In this document: in pieces, positions 8,299 to 21,403 of the stretch | How positions within the stretch are numbered: the first letter of the stretch is position 1 | How the letters are laid out: every line of letters begins with the position of its first letter | Origin: Alphaproteobacteria bacterium | GTDB taxonomy: Bacteria; Pseudomonadota; Alphaproteobacteria; Micavibrionales; Micavibrionaceae | Assembly (NCBI GenBank): GCA_009929775.1 | Contig: RZZS01000006.1 | Location: forward strand, 1 to 61,658 | Length of the DNA stretch: 61,658 nucleotides | Direction of reading: 5' to 3' | The notes under the pieces: model-generated | Databases searched by the model: none | What the model saw: only the letters and a program-made list of their open reading frames with translations | What the model was told of the DNA's origin: nothing | Translations under genes and position numbers: made by a program

Positions 8299-10170
<1,872 letters not shown>

Positions 10171-10317: not shown

Positions 10318-10587
10318 CTAGCTGGATTTAACGGTAATCAGCGAGGCTTCCGCGCGGCGGATCGCAAGAACCATCCGGTCGACGCGCACCGCAATCGGGT
10401 CGCGTCCGAACGGACCGGTGTGCAGAATCTCGACTTCCTTGTCTTCCTCGAAACCGATCTGGCGCAGGCGGCGGATCGACAGTTGCGTATTGTCATCGCC
10501 GGTCCCGATGGAAACGATACGGGCGCAGCAGCGCCGACCAAGCTGGGTCAATTGAAAGACCGGATCGTCGCTTTCCAGAAGCGCCAT
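10318..10587 (-). CDS. feoA: FeoA family protein
   Basis: Small SH3-like cytoplasmic protein that supports FeoB. The 89 residues show the family pattern: a first strand near LTQLGRRCCARIVSIG, the central RRLRQIGFEEDKEVEIL (about 39-55) and an end GRDPIAVRVDRMVLAIRRAEA. A GAGGGGTAGG ribosome-binding site lies just before the ATG. It is first in the feoAB unit, with a Fur-like box about 70 bases upstream. Confidence 0.92.
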   Translation of the reverse strand: MALLESDDPVFQLTQLGRRCCARIVSIGTGDDNTQLSIRRLRQIGFEEDKEVEILHTGPFGRDPIAVRVDRMVLAIRRAEASLITVKSS

Positions 10588-10654: not shown

Positions 10655-10667
10655 AATGATTATCACT
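10655..10667 (-). promoter_or_regulatory. Fur-like box upstream of feoAB
   Basis: On the gene strand the site reads AGTGATAATCATT, which differs at one position from the perfect palindrome AATGATAATCATT upstream of the nicotianamine-synthase-like gene at 19280. It sits 68 bases before feoA. A TATATT that could be the -10 lies between the box and the gene, near 10617-10622. Binding by Fur is inferred from the match to the general Fur consensus. Confidence 0.65.
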
Positions 10668-16194: not shown

Positions 16195-17466
16195 ATGAGA
16201 CGTGTTGTAGTCACGGGTATGGGTATGGTCACCCCGTTGGGGGTGGGCGTTAATCACAACTGGGCCGCCATCACGGTCGGAAAAAGCGGTATCAGACGCA
16301 TCGAGCACATCGACGTGTCGGATATCGCGTCGCAGGTTGCGGGGATCGTCCCGCGCACCGGGGATCCGGATCCGAAGGACGGTGCCTTCAACCCCGATCT
16401 CTACGTTTCGCCCAAGGAACAGCGAAAAACCGACACGTTCATCACCTACGCGATGGCGGCGGCCAGGGAGGCCGTCGAGGATAGCGGGTGGACGCCTGAA
16501 GACGAGGAATCGCGCGACCGTACCGGCGTGATGATCGGTGGCGGGATCGGCGGCCTGACGACGGTCTACGAGACGTCCGTTACCCTCGAGAATCAGGGGC
16601 CGCGCCGCGTATCGCCGTTTTGCATCCCGGCGATGCTCATCAATCTCGCTTCGGGGCACGTCTCGATCAAATACGGATTTCGCGGCCCCAACCATTCCGT
16701 GGTGACGGCCTGCGCGACCGGCACGCACGCCATCGGCGACGCGGCCCGGATGATTGCGCTCGACGACGCGGACGTCATGGTCGCGGGCGGCGCGGAAGCG
16801 GCGGTCAACCGCCTTGGCGTTTCCGGATTTGCGGCCGCGCGGGCGCTTTCGACCTCCTATAACGACCGGCCTCTGGACGCTTCGCGTCCGTTCGACGAGG
16901 GACGGGACGGCTTTGTTATCGCCGAAGGCGCGGGCATCGTTATCCTTGAGGAATACGAGCATGCAAAGGCGCGCGGCGCGAAGATCTACGGCGAAGTCAT
17001 CGGCTACGGCATGTCGGGTGACGCCTACCACATCACCGCCCCGTCCTCGGACGGCAGCGGCGGCTACCGGGCGATGAAAGCCGCGCTCAAACGTGCGGGG
17101 CTCAATCCGGAAGACATCGACTACATCAACGCGCATGGCACGTCCACGCCGGTCGGCGACGGGATCGAGTGCACGGCGGTGAAGCGCCTGTTCGGGAGCG
17201 CCCTGGGCACGGTCTCAATGTCCTCGACCAAATCGGCCATTGGCCACCTGCTTGGCGCGGCCGGTGCGGTGGAGGCGATCTATTCGCTGAAGACCATTGA
17301 AACCGGGATTCTCCCGCCGACGCTCAATCTCGAAAACGTATCCGAGCCATGTCAGGGCATCGATCTGGTGCCGAAGGTTGCGAAGGAAAAGAAAGTCAAT
17401 GTCGCTCTGTCGAACTCGTTCGGGTTCGGAGGCACGAATGCCAGTCTGGTTATGCGGGGCGTTTGA
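16195..17466 (+). CDS. fabF: 3-oxoacyl-ACP synthase II FabF
   Basis: Condensing enzyme that extends acyl-ACP with malonyl-ACP. The 423 residues have the Cys173 nucleophile in TACATGTHAIG, the catalytic His in NAHGTSTPVGD and in SAIGHLLGAAG, and a C-terminal NSFGFGGTNASL. Its last 17 bases overlap the convergent ATP-grasp gene. In related bacteria fabF is usually followed by mltG; here an opposite-strand operon separates them. Confidence 0.96.
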   Translation: MRRVVVTGMGMVTPLGVGVNHNWAAITVGKSGIRRIEHIDVSDIASQVAGIVPRTGDPDPKDGAFNPDLYVSPKEQRKTDTFITYAMAAAREAVEDSGWTPEDEESRDRTGVMIGGGIGGLTTVYETSVTLENQGPRRVSPFCIPAMLINLASGHVSIKYGFRGPNHSVVTACATGTHAIGDAARMIALDDADVMVAGGAEAAVNRLGVSGFAAARALSTSYNDRPLDASRPFDEGRDGFVIAEGAGIVILEEYEHAKARGAKIYGEVIGYGMSGDAYHITAPSSDGSGGYRAMKAALKRAGLNPEDIDYINAHGTSTPVGDGIECTAVKRLFGSALGTVSMSSTKSAIGHLLGAAGAVEAIYSLKTIETGILPPTLNLENVSEPCQGIDLVPKVAKEKKVNVALSNSFGFGGTNASLVMRGV

Positions 17467-18340
17467 GGCGCGTCTGTTCCATCCGGTCTATAATTGCGGT
17501 CGCAAACCGGTTTGTTGCACCTCTTTCGGATGACAGGTAGAGAGAGGGCTCATTGAGCTCAAGTTCCATCAGCAAAAGCCGGTCCTCGTGGAAGATTCCG
17601 TCAACTCTTGCATAAAGGGGGATTTCCGGAAGGGCTTCCAGCACGGCCTGTCCGCGCTTGACTTGCGCCTCTGTTACGCGAATCGGCTTGGCGCGTCCTC
17701 CGAAGCTCTTTTGAACGCGAAAATCCCCCGGCGCAGGATGTTTGCACACGGCGTGGGAGAATGCGCCTTCAATGAAAATCAGGGACACTTCACCCGTTGT
17801 CGCAATCTCGGGTAACAACGGCTGCAGAAGCATGTCGCAGTCGTAAGCCGTTATCGCCATTGTCAGGTCCTGCCGGAGAAGCTTCACGGTTCCCTCGGCG
17901 GAAGCGGAAATGGCGGGCTTGAGAACGAAATGCTCCGCCCGGTGATCTGCGAGTACCCTCCGGATCGCGGGAGCCGGGCAAAGTCCGGCCCGGAGCAACA
18001 CGGTCGGCACGATGGGCACGCCTTTTTTCTCAAGCTCGAACAAATAGCGCTTGTGCAGATTCCACGCTACCAGAGCCGGGCTGTTGGCAAGAGGAATGCC
18101 CCGTCCCGCCATGTCGCGAAGCCACCTGCGATAGGCTACGGGCCTGTTGTGGTAGCCCCACGTCGACCGGATCACGACGAAGTCGAAACGGGCCCAGGCA
18201 CTTGAGGTATCGGACCAGACGGGGCAGGAAGTCTGGTAACCCAATGCACGCAGTTCGCGAGCAAGACCTGCCGTTTCTGCGTCAAGAGGCCAGATGTCCC
18301 CGATCACGAGGGCGATGTTGCGAGGGTTCGAAAAAGTCAT
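17450..18340 (-). CDS. RimK-type ATP-grasp ligase, putative metallophore tailoring enzyme
   Basis: The 296-residue protein starts MTFSNPRNIALVIGD at ATG 18340, seven bases after the stop of the nicotianamine-synthase-like gene. A longer frame upstream overlaps that gene and is not used. ATP-grasp features are HFVLKPAISASAEGT (phosphate loop region), MLLQPLLPEIATTGEVSLIFIEG and a metal-binding ARVDGIF then MELELNEPSLYL. The family, which includes DcsG-like proteins, joins a carboxylate to an amine using ATP. With its partner it may ligate an amino acid to a nicotianamine-like product; this is inference from gene order. The 3' end overlaps fabF by 17 bases. Confidence 0.85.
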   Translation of the reverse strand: MTFSNPRNIALVIGDIWPLDAETAGLARELRALGYQTSCPVWSDTSSAWARFDFVVIRSTWGYHNRPVAYRRWLRDMAGRGIPLANSPALVAWNLHKRYLFELEKKGVPIVPTVLLRAGLCPAPAIRRVLADHRAEHFVLKPAISASAEGTVKLLRQDLTMAITAYDCDMLLQPLLPEIATTGEVSLIFIEGAFSHAVCKHPAPGDFRVQKSFGGRAKPIRVTEAQVKRGQAVLEALPEIPLYARVDGIFHEDRLLLMELELNEPSLYLSSERGATNRFATAIIDRMEQTRLKRPA

Positions 18341-18347
18341 CGTGATT

Positions 18348-19280
18348 CTATGCGGGCAGTGCTTCCGGGGAGGGCGTGGGCGTCCGTGCTCCAGAGGTCG
18401 CGGCGGCTTTGCCCGGAGGCAGTGTCGCGCCGTACGGGGCCGGGCGGAGAAAATGGGTCGTGTTGATCGTTTCAGATGAGTCTTTGCTGCTACTGACGTG
18501 CCGCAGACCGAGATCGTCAAACGCATGTTCGTTAACCGGTTCGTACAAGAGCGCCTTGAGGCCACGCACGGATCGTACCCCAATGGCGGCGTCCGGTGCC
18601 GTCGCCTGGATCCTTCGGACAACAGAATCCTTTTCGGGAACAAGCGAGGCGACCATTACGACATCGCACCCGGCATAGTCAAACGTTTCACCCGCATGCC
18701 GGTGTACGCCGATTTTGTGTTGGAGGCCCATATTGGCTATCATTTGCCTGGAAAGCCGGACGGCATCCGCGTCACTGTCAATACAGAGCACGTCCGCTCC
18801 GGTGGCGAAATGCATGTCAATTGCGGTCAGCGGGAGTGGACCGGAGCCAACGAAAGCAATCTTGCCGGAGAGTGCGCTGCCTGAACGAAGAACGCTGGCC
18901 ATCGCTGTGACTTCCGCGTCGACCAGATTTCGGTAACATGTTCTGTACCAGAACTGGTCAAGGTCGGAGGCGGTGAGCGGACACTGCGCTCCAAACTGCT
19001 GCGCGAAATACCGTTCCATCAGGTATTCTGCATGGCTCAACTTTTCCAGCATCGGCTTCCTGATGTTACGCACATCCGGATTTTCGAGAATCGACGCCGT
19101 AGCGTGGACGGAGGAAACGTGAAGGACGGCATCGACGAATGTGCGGAGGAGGGAATTAACCCGCTCGTTTGCGGGGGACAGATCCACCTCCCTTCCGAGG
19201 CTTTCGTAGGTCTGGCGGATGAGGCTGATAAAAGCCGCAACTTCGGGATGATCGGGCGTAGCGACAGAGCCTGTCGGCAT
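18348..19280 (-). CDS. Nicotianamine synthase family protein
   Basis: The 310-residue protein matches the nicotianamine synthase fold. FWYRTCYRNLVDAE (110-123) parallels the Y-xx-Y-x-NL-xxx-E block that holds the catalytic Glu in plant and archaeal enzymes. FVGSGPLPLT (143-152) is the SAM-binding signature, and GVRSVRGLKALLYEPV and VASLVPEKD are also conserved. The family transfers aminobutyrate units from SAM to make metal-chelating products (nicotianamine, or opine metallophore precursors in bacteria). GGAGG six bases before the ATG sets the start. It leads a two-gene unit with the ATP-grasp gene, behind a Fur-like box. No opine dehydrogenase or transporter is nearby. Confidence 0.88.
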   Translation of the reverse strand: MPTGSVATPDHPEVAAFISLIRQTYESLGREVDLSPANERVNSLLRTFVDAVLHVSSVHATASILENPDVRNIRKPMLEKLSHAEYLMERYFAQQFGAQCPLTASDLDQFWYRTCYRNLVDAEVTAMASVLRSGSALSGKIAFVGSGPLPLTAIDMHFATGADVLCIDSDADAVRLSRQMIANMGLQHKIGVHRHAGETFDYAGCDVVMVASLVPEKDSVVRRIQATAPDAAIGVRSVRGLKALLYEPVNEHAFDDLGLRHVSSSKDSSETINTTHFLRPAPYGATLPPGKAAATSGARTPTPSPEALPA

Positions 19281-19371
19281 AGAAAACCTCCACGGAAAAA
19301 TTGCGAATAAGTCGCATTTGCGTTTGTTGCGGACCAGAAGTACGAAAGAGCGACAGGCGAGTCAACAAGGA

Positions 19372-19384
19372 AATGATAATCATT
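19372..19384. promoter_or_regulatory. Perfect Fur-like palindrome
   Basis: AATGATAATCATT is a perfect 13-base inverted repeat and matches the core of the Fur consensus. It lies 91 bases before the nicotianamine-synthase-like gene and 60 bases before mltG on the other strand. A TTGACT that could be the -35 for the minus-strand gene lies a few bases inside the intergenic region. Iron repression is inferred. Confidence 0.75.
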
Positions 19385-19444
19385 CGCAGCCCATCGAATG
19401 ACAAAAAGGGTTGCCGAACGTCACAGACGCGCTAAAAGACATTC

Positions 19445-20443
19445 ATGAAACCGATTCTTGCTTTGGTGGGTCTGATCATTTCTCTGGCAGTGCTGCTCGC
19501 AGGAATCGCGCTCTGGTGGCTGCTTACAGCTTTCAACGCGCCGGGTCCGGTTTCGGAAGAGCGTTTTTTGGTTGTCGAGCGCGGGGAGTCGCTTGGGCAT
19601 ATCGCTGCGAAACTTGAGTCGGAAGGGTTGCTGAAAAAGCCGTTGGTGTTCAAGCTGATAGCGCGGCTCTCGGGCGCGGCGGCGGATCTGAAAGCCGGCG
19701 AGTATGCCGTCCCGGCTTCGGCGAGCGCGAAAGATATTCTCGAATTGTTGCGGTCCGGCAAGGTCTATCACCGGTCAGTGACGATCCCTGAGGGCCGGAC
19801 CAGTTGGGAAATCGTCCAGATCGTCAATGCACTGGATGTCGGCGGTGCGATTAAATCTCTGCCGGACGAAGGCGCTCTGCTTCCCGAGACTTACACCTAT
19901 ACACGGGCTGATACGTGTTCGTCGCTAATCGCCCGGATGGAAGTGGCTATGGACGAGGTTATCGAGGAGCTTTGGCCTGGTCGCGCGGAGAACCTGCCGT
20001 TCGAGAGGGTTGAAGAAGCCATTACGCTTGCCTCTATCGTCGAAAAGGAGACGGGCGTGGCTGGCGAACGGGCGAAAGTAGCGGGCGTCTTCATTAACCG
20101 TCTGCGCAAGGGCATGCCATTGCAATCCGACCCGACGGTAATTTACGCTCTAACCCGCGGCCAACACGAGAACACGGGGAAAGGCCCGCTCGGGCGGCGT
20201 TTGCTTCGCAAGGACCTCGCGTTCGACTCGCCCTACAACACCTACAAACATACCGGCCTGCCGCCGGGCCCCATTGCCAATCCGGGGCGGGGTTCGATCG
20301 AAGCGGTTCTGCATCCGGAAGAACACGACTACCTGTACTTCGTTGCCGACGGCACCGGGGGCCATGCCTTCGCGAAGACGCTCGACGAACATAACCGCAA
20401 TGTCGCTGTATGGCGGAAAATCAGGCGCGAAAGCGGAAGGTAG
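19445..20443 (+). CDS. mltG: Endolytic murein transglycosylase MltG
   Basis: Cleaves nascent peptidoglycan strands and sets glycan length. The 332 residues have an N-terminal membrane helix (4-28), a LysM-like region (GESLGHIAAKLESEG) and the YceG catalytic domain with Glu200 in LASIVEKETG. The DPTVIYAL and SPYNTYKHTGLPPGPIANPG motifs follow. It stands apart from fabF, its usual neighbour, because of the intervening metallophore-like operon. Confidence 0.94.
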   Translation: MKPILALVGLIISLAVLLAGIALWWLLTAFNAPGPVSEERFLVVERGESLGHIAAKLESEGLLKKPLVFKLIARLSGAAADLKAGEYAVPASASAKDILELLRSGKVYHRSVTIPEGRTSWEIVQIVNALDVGGAIKSLPDEGALLPETYTYTRADTCSSLIARMEVAMDEVIEELWPGRAENLPFERVEEAITLASIVEKETGVAGERAKVAGVFINRLRKGMPLQSDPTVIYALTRGQHENTGKGPLGRRLLRKDLAFDSPYNTYKHTGLPPGPIANPGRGSIEAVLHPEEHDYLYFVADGTGGHAFAKTLDEHNRNVAVWRKIRRESGR

Positions 20444-20935: not shown

Positions 20936-21403
20936 CTATTTCCGACCGATGCTCTCGAGCATCCATGCCGCTTTTTCGTGAACCTGAACCCGCGCGATCA
21001 GCATGTCCGTTGTGGCTTCGTCGCCTGCATCCTGCGCGGCACGCAGCGCCGAATACAGCGAGTCGACGATCGCACGGTTGTCGGCAGCAAGAGCCTTAAC
21101 CATTTCGTCGGCGTCGGGGAGCTGGCCGACCTCGCGCAACGTGGCTTTGTCCTGAATTTCCTTCATGGAGGTCGCGGCCCATGCATCAAGAGCGCGGATC
21201 CGCTCGGCCAGTTCGTCGACGGCGTTCCAGAGTTCCGTATATTGCTCCTCAAACAGCTCGTGCAAAGCCTTGAACTGAACGCCCGTCACGTTCCAGTGAA
21301 AAGCGTGTGTCTTGAAGTACAGAACGAACGTGTCGGCGAGCACGCGGGCCAAACCCTCGGTTACGTCCTTGTTCTTTTTGCCGTCCATATAAGGCTGGCG
21401 CAT
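20936..21403 (-). CDS. dps: Dps/ferritin-like DNA-binding protein
   Basis: The 155-residue ferritin-like protein has the Dps signature KTHAFHWNVTG (about 31-41) and HELFEEQYTELWNAVDELAERIRALD, which contribute the dimer-interface ferroxidase residues. Dps forms 12-subunit shells that store iron and protect DNA from peroxide. It is a single gene. The name fits the family; whether this copy binds DNA cannot be read. Confidence 0.92.
   Translation of the reverse strand: MRQPYMDGKKNKDVTEGLARVLADTFVLYFKTHAFHWNVTGVQFKALHELFEEQYTELWNAVDELAERIRALDAWAATSMKEIQDKATLREVGQLPDADEMVKALAADNRAIVDSLYSALRAAQDAGDEATTDMLIARVQVHEKAAWMLESIGRK

What the first reader, a model, noticed from the sequence alone, without database searches (positions are those of the whole stretch)
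17450..19384. Iron-regulated-looking operon joining a nicotianamine-synthase-like enzyme to an ATP-grasp ligase
A gene with the FVGSGPLPLT signature and the Y-xx-Y-x-NL-xxx-E block of nicotianamine synthases is followed seven bases later by a RimK/DcsG-like ATP-grasp ligase. A perfect Fur-like palindrome stands in front. Known bacterial metallophore pathways of this family use an opine dehydrogenase as second enzyme; none is here. An ATP-grasp partner would instead form an amide or ester bond, suggesting a different product class, perhaps an aminobutyrate-based chelator joined to an amino acid. This is the best candidate in the window for a new system.
Basis: partly seen in the sequence, partly recalled or inferred. 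Interest (0 to 1): 0.85.

Follow-up and report, generated by a model that had tools for sequence, protein, structure and literature searches.

The report
Iron-switched nicotianamine-like chelator gene pair
A Micavibrio-like bacterium carries two adjacent genes, one for a relative of the plant metal-chelator enzyme nicotianamine synthase and one for a bond-forming ATP-grasp enzyme, behind a DNA site that matches the iron-repressor (Fur) box; together they are predicted to make a new variant of iron-binding molecule when iron runs short.

Summary
Window 18348-19280 (-) encodes a nicotianamine-synthase (NAS) family protein: Pfam 85.9 bits (cut-off 27.1), nearest solved fold archaeal MtNAS, both catalytic residues kept. 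Seven bases later, 17450-18340 (-) encodes an ATP-grasp enzyme nearest to D-cycloserine synthetase DcsG. An exact Fur-core palindrome lies 91 bp upstream; a one-mismatch copy precedes feoAB in the same window. The pair recurs in two genomes of another genus of the family, in a genome of another family (G186; perhaps a second coupling, AU p 0.06), and probably in G048 across a contig break. Fur-like boxes precede 16 of 27 NAS operon heads tested in the order (not all independent). One relative has NAS in a run with an FTR1 iron permease. Against a textbook siderophore: no TonB-receptor domain was found in this genome. Best reading: a Fur-controlled pathway for an amide-tailored, nicotianamine-like chelator, perhaps kept inside the cell. 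Substrates, product and iron response are untested. The literature searches listed no description of the pair, in an open-access library only. New variant of a known kind.

The parts
18348..19280 (-). NAS-like aminocarboxypropyl transferase gene, 310 aa
17450..18340 (-). DcsG-like ATP-grasp ligase gene, 296 aa, starting 7 bases after the NAS stop
   Evidence: DcsG 6jil E 2.8e-24, TM 0.85; ATP/metal-site residues kept
19372..19384 (.). Fur-core palindrome AATGATAATCATT, 91 bp upstream of the NAS start
   Evidence: Only exact copy in the genome; binding itself untested
19376..19404 (-). Weak sigma-70-like promoter candidate whose second hexamer overlaps the palindrome
   Evidence: 1 found, 0.5 expected: not significant on its own
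10655..10667 (-). Second Fur-like site, 12 of 13, 67 bp upstream of feoA (co-regulation control, not part of the pair)
10318..10587 (-). feoA, 89 aa (co-regulated in our reading)
   Evidence: PF04023 E 7.1e-13
8299..10170 (-). feoB, ferrous iron importer (co-regulated in our reading)
   Evidence: PF02421 E 9.7e-52, PF07664 E 1.9e-14

Best explanation
The window carries a two-gene unit, a nicotianamine-synthase-like gene followed seven bases later by a DcsG-like ATP-grasp gene behind a Fur-box-like palindrome, that is likely switched on by iron shortage and would make an amide-tailored, nicotianamine-like metal chelator. Inferred steps: when iron is low, Fur leaves the palindrome and frees the promoter. 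The NAS-like enzyme, with E89 and Y116 as base, moves a 3-amino-3-carboxypropyl group from S-adenosylmethionine to the amine of an acceptor amino acid and releases methylthioadenosine. The ATP-grasp enzyme then activates a carboxylate as an acyl phosphate and closes an amide bond, either to a second amino acid or within the molecule as DcsG does. Because no TonB-receptor domain was found in the genome and the gene pair that shares the box encodes the ferrous importer FeoAB, the chelator more likely handles iron inside the cell than being recycled as a classical siderophore. Shown here: gene identities, kept catalytic residues, order and spacing, the boxes, and recurrence of the pair.
For: NAS identity and catalytic residues. 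ATP-grasp identity. Pair in G000, G041 and G060, in G186, likely in G048 and on two metagenome contigs by shared contig length and source (P0004 with P0061, P0009 with P0070). NAS-linked ATP-grasps plus P0043 and P0059 form one clade, 100/98; their NAS partners fall in one clade of 12 rows, 94/90. Box exact in front of the pair and 12 of 13 in front of feoAB; boxes at 16 of 27 operon heads in relatives, shuffle p <= 0.05. NAS in a cupredoxin-FTR1-NAS-M20-GNAT run in G090.
Against: No product, acceptor or iron response has been measured. Most NAS loci read have no ATP-grasp partner (2 of 22 named loci, both the same genomes as G060/G041; 1 of 10 class-level loci), and P0002, the nearest NAS relative, has unknown neighbours. 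11 of 27 operon heads lack a significant box and the tested rows share ancestry. No transporter or export gene stands beside the pair. For the in-cell part: 5 of 22 NAS genomes do carry a TonB plug domain, and G044 has an oligopeptide-type ABC ATPase next to NAS.
Confidence: 0.5

Rival explanations
1. The product is a secreted metallophore of the staphylopine kind with a different tailoring enzyme; it would leave the cell and return loaded through a porin and an ABC importer instead of a TonB receptor.
For: NAS relatives serve secreted zincophores (PMC7438024, passages); G044 has an oligopeptide-type ABC ATPase after NAS; such molecules are small enough for porins (recalled).
Against: No exporter or importer beside the pair; no TonB-receptor domain found in G000; ARL-13 is reported to lack amino acid, peptide and amine transporters (PMC3189940, passages).
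Confidence: 0.2
2. The two enzymes share an operon but not a pathway: the NAS-like enzyme alone makes the chelator and the ATP-grasp enzyme does an unrelated iron-linked job.
For: M. aeruginosavorus-type genomes G022 and G051 have a boxed NAS without an ATP-grasp neighbour and no ATP-grasp match at E <= 0.001; MtNAS needs no partner for its product.
Against: Seven- and eight-base spacing in G000 and G186, and recurrence with ATP-grasps from what look like different branches.
Confidence: 0.14
3. The pair makes a chelator for zinc, nickel or another metal, and the palindrome is read by another Fur-family regulator.
For: Known NAS-type bacterial metallophores are mainly zincophores; only one Fur-family gene was found and its metal was not tested.
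Against: The same box precedes feoAB, and NAS runs with FTR1 in G090.
Confidence: 0.1
4. The NAS-like enzyme would ring-close SAM to azetidine-2-carboxylate and the ATP-grasp enzyme would couple it to an amino acid, giving an antimetabolite rather than a chelator.
For: Azetidine-2-carboxylate synthase genes are reported with ATP-grasp and acetyltransferase neighbours (PMC11794875, section 10 and its figure legend).
Against: Those synthases are described as class I methyltransferase-like, whereas this protein matches NAS over model residues 9-282, N-terminal helical part included; the iron-type box recurs.
Confidence: 0.05

Closest known systems
Thermonicotianamine synthase MtNAS (Methanothermobacter, PDB 3fpe)
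   Different: About 23% identity; acceptor and number of additions unknown here; MtNAS is not reported in these sources with an ATP-grasp partner
Staphylopine-type opine metallophore pathway (CntL plus CntM)
   Same: NAS-family first enzyme; metal-starvation-type control
   Different: ATP-grasp instead of opine dehydrogenase as the next gene; no adjacent transport genes; box of the Fur type; CntL equivalog score 38 of 350
D-cycloserine synthetase DcsG (PDB 6jil)
   Same: Nearest solved relative of the ATP-grasp protein by sequence and fold
   Different: 28% identity; equivalog score 155.8 of 360; partner is NAS, not the cycloserine genes (recalled)
Azetidine-2-carboxylate synthases AzeJ/VioH and their clusters
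   Same: SAM aminocarboxypropyl chemistry with ATP-grasp genes reported nearby
   Different: Described as class I methyltransferase-like; the window protein scores as NAS over its full length

Membership tests
Nicotianamine synthase family (PF03059) | Curated Pfam score | tested here: met
   85.9 bits, cut-off 27.1
Nicotianamine synthase family (PF03059) | Catalytic Glu and Tyr (E81/Y107 of MtNAS) | tested here: met
   E89 and Y116; 78 of 78 sequences
Nicotianamine synthase family (PF03059) | SAM aminocarboxypropyl transfer | not testable with these tools
   Needs enzyme assay
Staphylopine-type opine metallophore | CntL equivalog | tested here: not met
   NF033601 38 bits of 350
Staphylopine-type opine metallophore | Opine dehydrogenase directly after the NAS gene | tested here: not met
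   The next gene is the ATP-grasp gene
Staphylopine-type opine metallophore | Opine dehydrogenase anywhere in the genome | tested here: inconclusive
   PF10100 and PF02317 gave no match but rang in none of the control genomes
TonB-dependent siderophore system | TonB-dependent receptor in the genome | tested here: not met
   PF07715 and PF00593 0 matches in G000 (100% complete, 190 contigs); both ring in E. coli, Caulobacter and Bacteroides controls
D-cycloserine synthetase DcsG | Equivalog score | tested here: not met
   NF058666 155.8 bits of 360
ATP-grasp ligase fold (DcsG/RimK/GshB group) | Fold and ATP/metal-site residues | tested here: met
   TM 0.85 to DcsG; K141, E184, R245, D247, E259, E261 kept in 7 of 7 NAS-associated copies. 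Pfam GSH-S_ATP is just below its cut-off, 20.6 of 23
Fur regulon | Fur-box match upstream, shared with a known iron operon | tested here: met
   Exact core at NAS, 12 of 13 at feoA
Fur regulon | Fur binding and iron response | not testable with these tools
   One Fur-family gene is present; its metal was not tested

The most novel reading that the evidence does not exclude
Micavibrio-type bacteria and their kin own a Fur-controlled family of nicotianamine-like chelators finished not by an opine dehydrogenase but by swappable modules (ATP-grasp amide ligase here; M20 peptidase with acetyltransferase, methyltransferase, or a fused cysteine-synthase-like enzyme in relatives), used plant-fashion inside the cell behind FeoB or FTR1 instead of as TonB-recycled siderophores.
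Probability: 0.35. Interest if true: 0.8.

Novelty: new variant of a known kind. Interest (0 to 1): 0.62.

Why it matters
Characterised bacterial nicotianamine-like metallophores are finished by an opine dehydrogenase and mostly serve zinc (PMC7438024, passages). A NAS enzyme coupled to an amide ligase under an iron-type switch would open a new product class and show how bacteria without TonB receptors may manage iron. Both proteins are small, and the chemistry can be tested directly in vitro. It also gives a search key (NAS plus DcsG-like ATP-grasp, or NAS plus M20) for pathways that searches built on opine dehydrogenase cannot see.

Tried and rejected
A NAS/ATP-grasp fusion as independent proof: a search sized for fusions scored nothing at E <= 0.001; as it also failed to list the 542-aa P0037, that negative is weak. 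Viral contigs: no NAS relative with the patterns used. Opine dehydrogenase elsewhere in the genome: nothing found, but PF10100 and PF02317 rang in no control genome, so left open. A link between NAS and lack of TonB plugs: 5 of 22 NAS genomes against 28 of 73 others have a plug, Fisher p 0.21; in the window's family 1 of 10 against 21 of 51, p 0.08; not significant, not used. Calling the ATP-grasp RimK: rejected, DcsG is nearer by sequence and fold. Pure chance neighbourhood: rejected because. A second recruitment in G186: favoured by the tree (100/99 with another ATP-grasp), not proven (AU p 0.060). The second NAS tree had an unsettled bootstrap and weak deep forks, so branching outside the Micavibrio-type clade is not relied on. 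A promoter scan was at chance level.

Rows left out. P0021, P0032, P0033 and P0037-P0040 (short or marginal), loci L032, L035, L037, L038, L119, L087 and the second NAS genes, and 2 of 20 named loci for which my script took no ORF; of the 120 listed ATP-grasp hits I took P0041-P0059, P0061, P0070 and the even numbers from P0060 on; the very long G050 row dropped. G044 not tested (contig ends upstream). Labels: 'linked' for P0004 and P0009 rests on shared contig length and source, for P0006 on near-identity to P0005; those contigs were not read. Genes other than those scanned are named from BLAST or by eye.
Full report
WHAT IS THERE. On the minus strand, window 18348-19280 encodes a 310-aa protein and 17450-18340 a 296-aa protein; the gap between stop and next ATG is seven bases. 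The pair sits between fabF (16195-17466, convergent) and an mltG/yceG gene (19445-20443, divergent), that is, between housekeeping genes, with no transporter beside it.

SECOND PROTEIN. Nearest solved relative is D-cycloserine synthetase DcsG (E 2.8e-24; model pLDDT 95.0, TM 0.85), then LysX/ArgX, D-Ala-D-Ala ligase, RimK and glutathione synthetase, which form amide bonds through an acyl phosphate (recalled). It misses the DcsG equivalog cut-off (155.8 of 360 bits) and, narrowly, Pfam GSH-S_ATP (20.6 of 23); its database record carries the newer Pfam label PF27100. Residues expected at the ATP and metal site are invariant in the 51-row alignment and kept in 7 of 7 NAS-associated copies.

REGULATORY SITE. 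AATGATAATCATT occurs exactly once in the 2.99-Mb genome, in front of this pair; with one mismatch there are five places in all, and the reversed control pattern gives none. The other place in this window lies 67 bp upstream of feoA-feoB. Of the remaining three, one is about 120 bp upstream of an ORF with iron-sulphur-type cysteine motifs on C45, one falls inside what looks like the ribosomal protein L11 gene on C100 (both read by eye), and one is on the 4.2-kb contig C9. One Fur-family gene was found; whether it senses iron, manganese or zinc was not tested. A promoter candidate overlaps the box but is at chance level. In relatives, 16 of 27 NAS operon heads have a box at shuffle p <= 0.05, 9 of 11 in the window's family; several rows share a genus, and 11 of 27 do not show it. 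Of five class-level NAS genes looked at without a shuffle test, G186, G358 and G191 have 11, 11 and 12 of 13 matches, G320 and G338 only 8 and 9.

WHO THE HOST IS. The single 2,481,983-base contig of G051 has the size reported for M. aeruginosavorus ARL-13 (PMC3189940, passages). All are in the window's family. So the window is from a Micavibrio-like lineage; NCBI files the genus under Bdellovibrionota. Whether this organism is a predator is not known.

IS THE PAIR REAL? NAS is patchy: 22 of 95 relatives (21 over the cut-off), 31 of 142 genomes of the order, 26 of 385 of the class, many of these weak. The ATP-grasp is rarer: 10 of 95 relatives, seven of them with E below 1e-30. They adjoin in G000, G041 and G060; G041 and G060 share a genus. 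In G050 a very distant ATP-grasp (23% identity, E 1.4e-5, no Pfam family at E <= 0.001) lies convergent to NAS. In G048 an ATP-grasp and the N-terminal part of a methyltransferase run off the end of one contig, and a methyltransferase C-terminal part followed by NAS-PLP enzyme-NAS opens another; they match residues 9-59 and 117-227 of G104's methyltransferase, while G023's methyltransferase matches only the first part clearly. One split operon is likely, not proven. Among 22 named loci with NAS only two, the same genomes as G060 and G041, have an ATP-grasp in the fetched flanks of up to 8 kb. Of ten class-level loci that I fetched (from 26 genomes with a match), one, G186 of another family, has NAS then ATP-grasp eight bases later. 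In the careful ATP-grasp tree the window-type NAS-linked enzymes plus P0043 and P0059 form one clade (100/98), while G186's copy lies elsewhere (100/99 with P0074); forcing it into that clade costs 37 log units, AU p 0.060. The matching NAS genes fall in one clade of 12 rows (94/90) within a Micavibrio-type clade of 17 (99/97); P0002, P0003 and P0007 in it have unknown neighbours.

WIDER PATTERN. NAS in this order has other partners. In most f3-family loci read it abuts an M20 peptidase (G141 is an exception), sometimes with a GNAT acetyltransferase; in G090 the run is cupredoxin-FTR1 iron permease-NAS-M20-GNAT. G104 has methyltransferase-NAS, G358 methyltransferase-NAS-NAS, and G044 an oligopeptide-type ABC ATPase after NAS. 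In G023 a NAS-like part is joined to a PLP (cysteine-synthase-like) domain behind a methyltransferase; there Pfam sees only the PLP domain at E <= 0.001, and the NAS part rests on the A1 profile (E 2.3e-36). The FTR1 run is independent context for a role of NAS in iron handling.

HOW IT MOST LIKELY WORKS. Fur frees the promoter when iron is low; NAS adds an aminocarboxypropyl arm from SAM to an amino acid; ATP-grasp closes an amide. All of this chemistry is inferred from family knowledge. Against a classical siderophore: neither PF07715 nor PF00593 was found in this genome (listed as 100% complete), while both ring in three control genomes. ARL-13 is reported to lack known amino acid, peptide and amine transporters. 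On the other side, 5 of 22 NAS genomes do carry a plug domain. I therefore favour, at modest confidence, a chelator that handles imported iron inside the cell; a metallophore recycled by porin and ABC importer remains open.

WHAT IS KNOWN. PMC7438024 (passages) maps opine dehydrogenase clusters with NAS and does not contain the word ATP-grasp. PMC11794875 (passages and section 10) shows ATP-grasp neighbours of azetidine synthases, a different enzyme family, in a figure legend. PMC3189940 (passages) contains neither nicotianamine, siderophore nor TonB. Searches: nicotianamine synthase with ATP-grasp, 2 papers; nicotianamine with ATP-grasp ligase, 0; metallophore, staphylopine and ATP-grasp, 1; Micavibrio with nicotianamine, 1; predatory bacteria with nicotianamine, 3; NAS, bacteria, gene cluster, iron and Fur, 4, all on staphylococcal or Pseudomonas zinc by title. 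Apart from PMC11794875 these were seen as listings only, and none is about this pair by title. Subscription papers are not held.

Noticed in passing
L087:7971-9782 (G023): One 603-aa frame joins a NAS-like N-terminal part to a PLP-dependent (cysteine-synthase-like) domain, behind a methyltransferase gene with a Fur-like box.
   Followed up: partly
L031:6079-10656 (G090): Run of cupredoxin, FTR1 iron permease, NAS, M20 peptidase and GNAT acetyltransferase, with a Fur-like box at its head.
   Followed up: partly
L040:345-3119 and L092:1-1137 (G048): NAS, Cys/Met-type PLP enzyme and a second NAS on one contig; ATP-grasp and part of a methyltransferase at the end of another, probably one split operon.
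   Followed up: partly
L158:7679-10590 (G358): Methyltransferase followed by two NAS-like genes in a row.
   Followed up: no
L028, L030, L031, L037, L038, L119, L120, L121 (f3 family): NAS overlaps or abuts an M20 peptidase gene; an aldo/keto-reductase-like gene (named by eye) stands near the NAS gene in these loci.
   Followed up: no
window 20936-21403 (-): Dps/ferritin-like gene (PF00210 E 4.4e-29) 1.7 kb from the NAS gene; no Fur-like core at <=3 mismatches near it.
   Followed up: no
L117:3080-3092 (G000 C45): One-mismatch Fur core about 120 bp upstream of an ORF with iron-sulphur-type cysteine motifs.
   Followed up: no
G000 (whole genome): No TonB-dependent receptor domain (PF07715, PF00593) found in a genome listed as complete, as also for G022 and G051 (PF07715) of M. 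aeruginosavorus type.
   Followed up: partly
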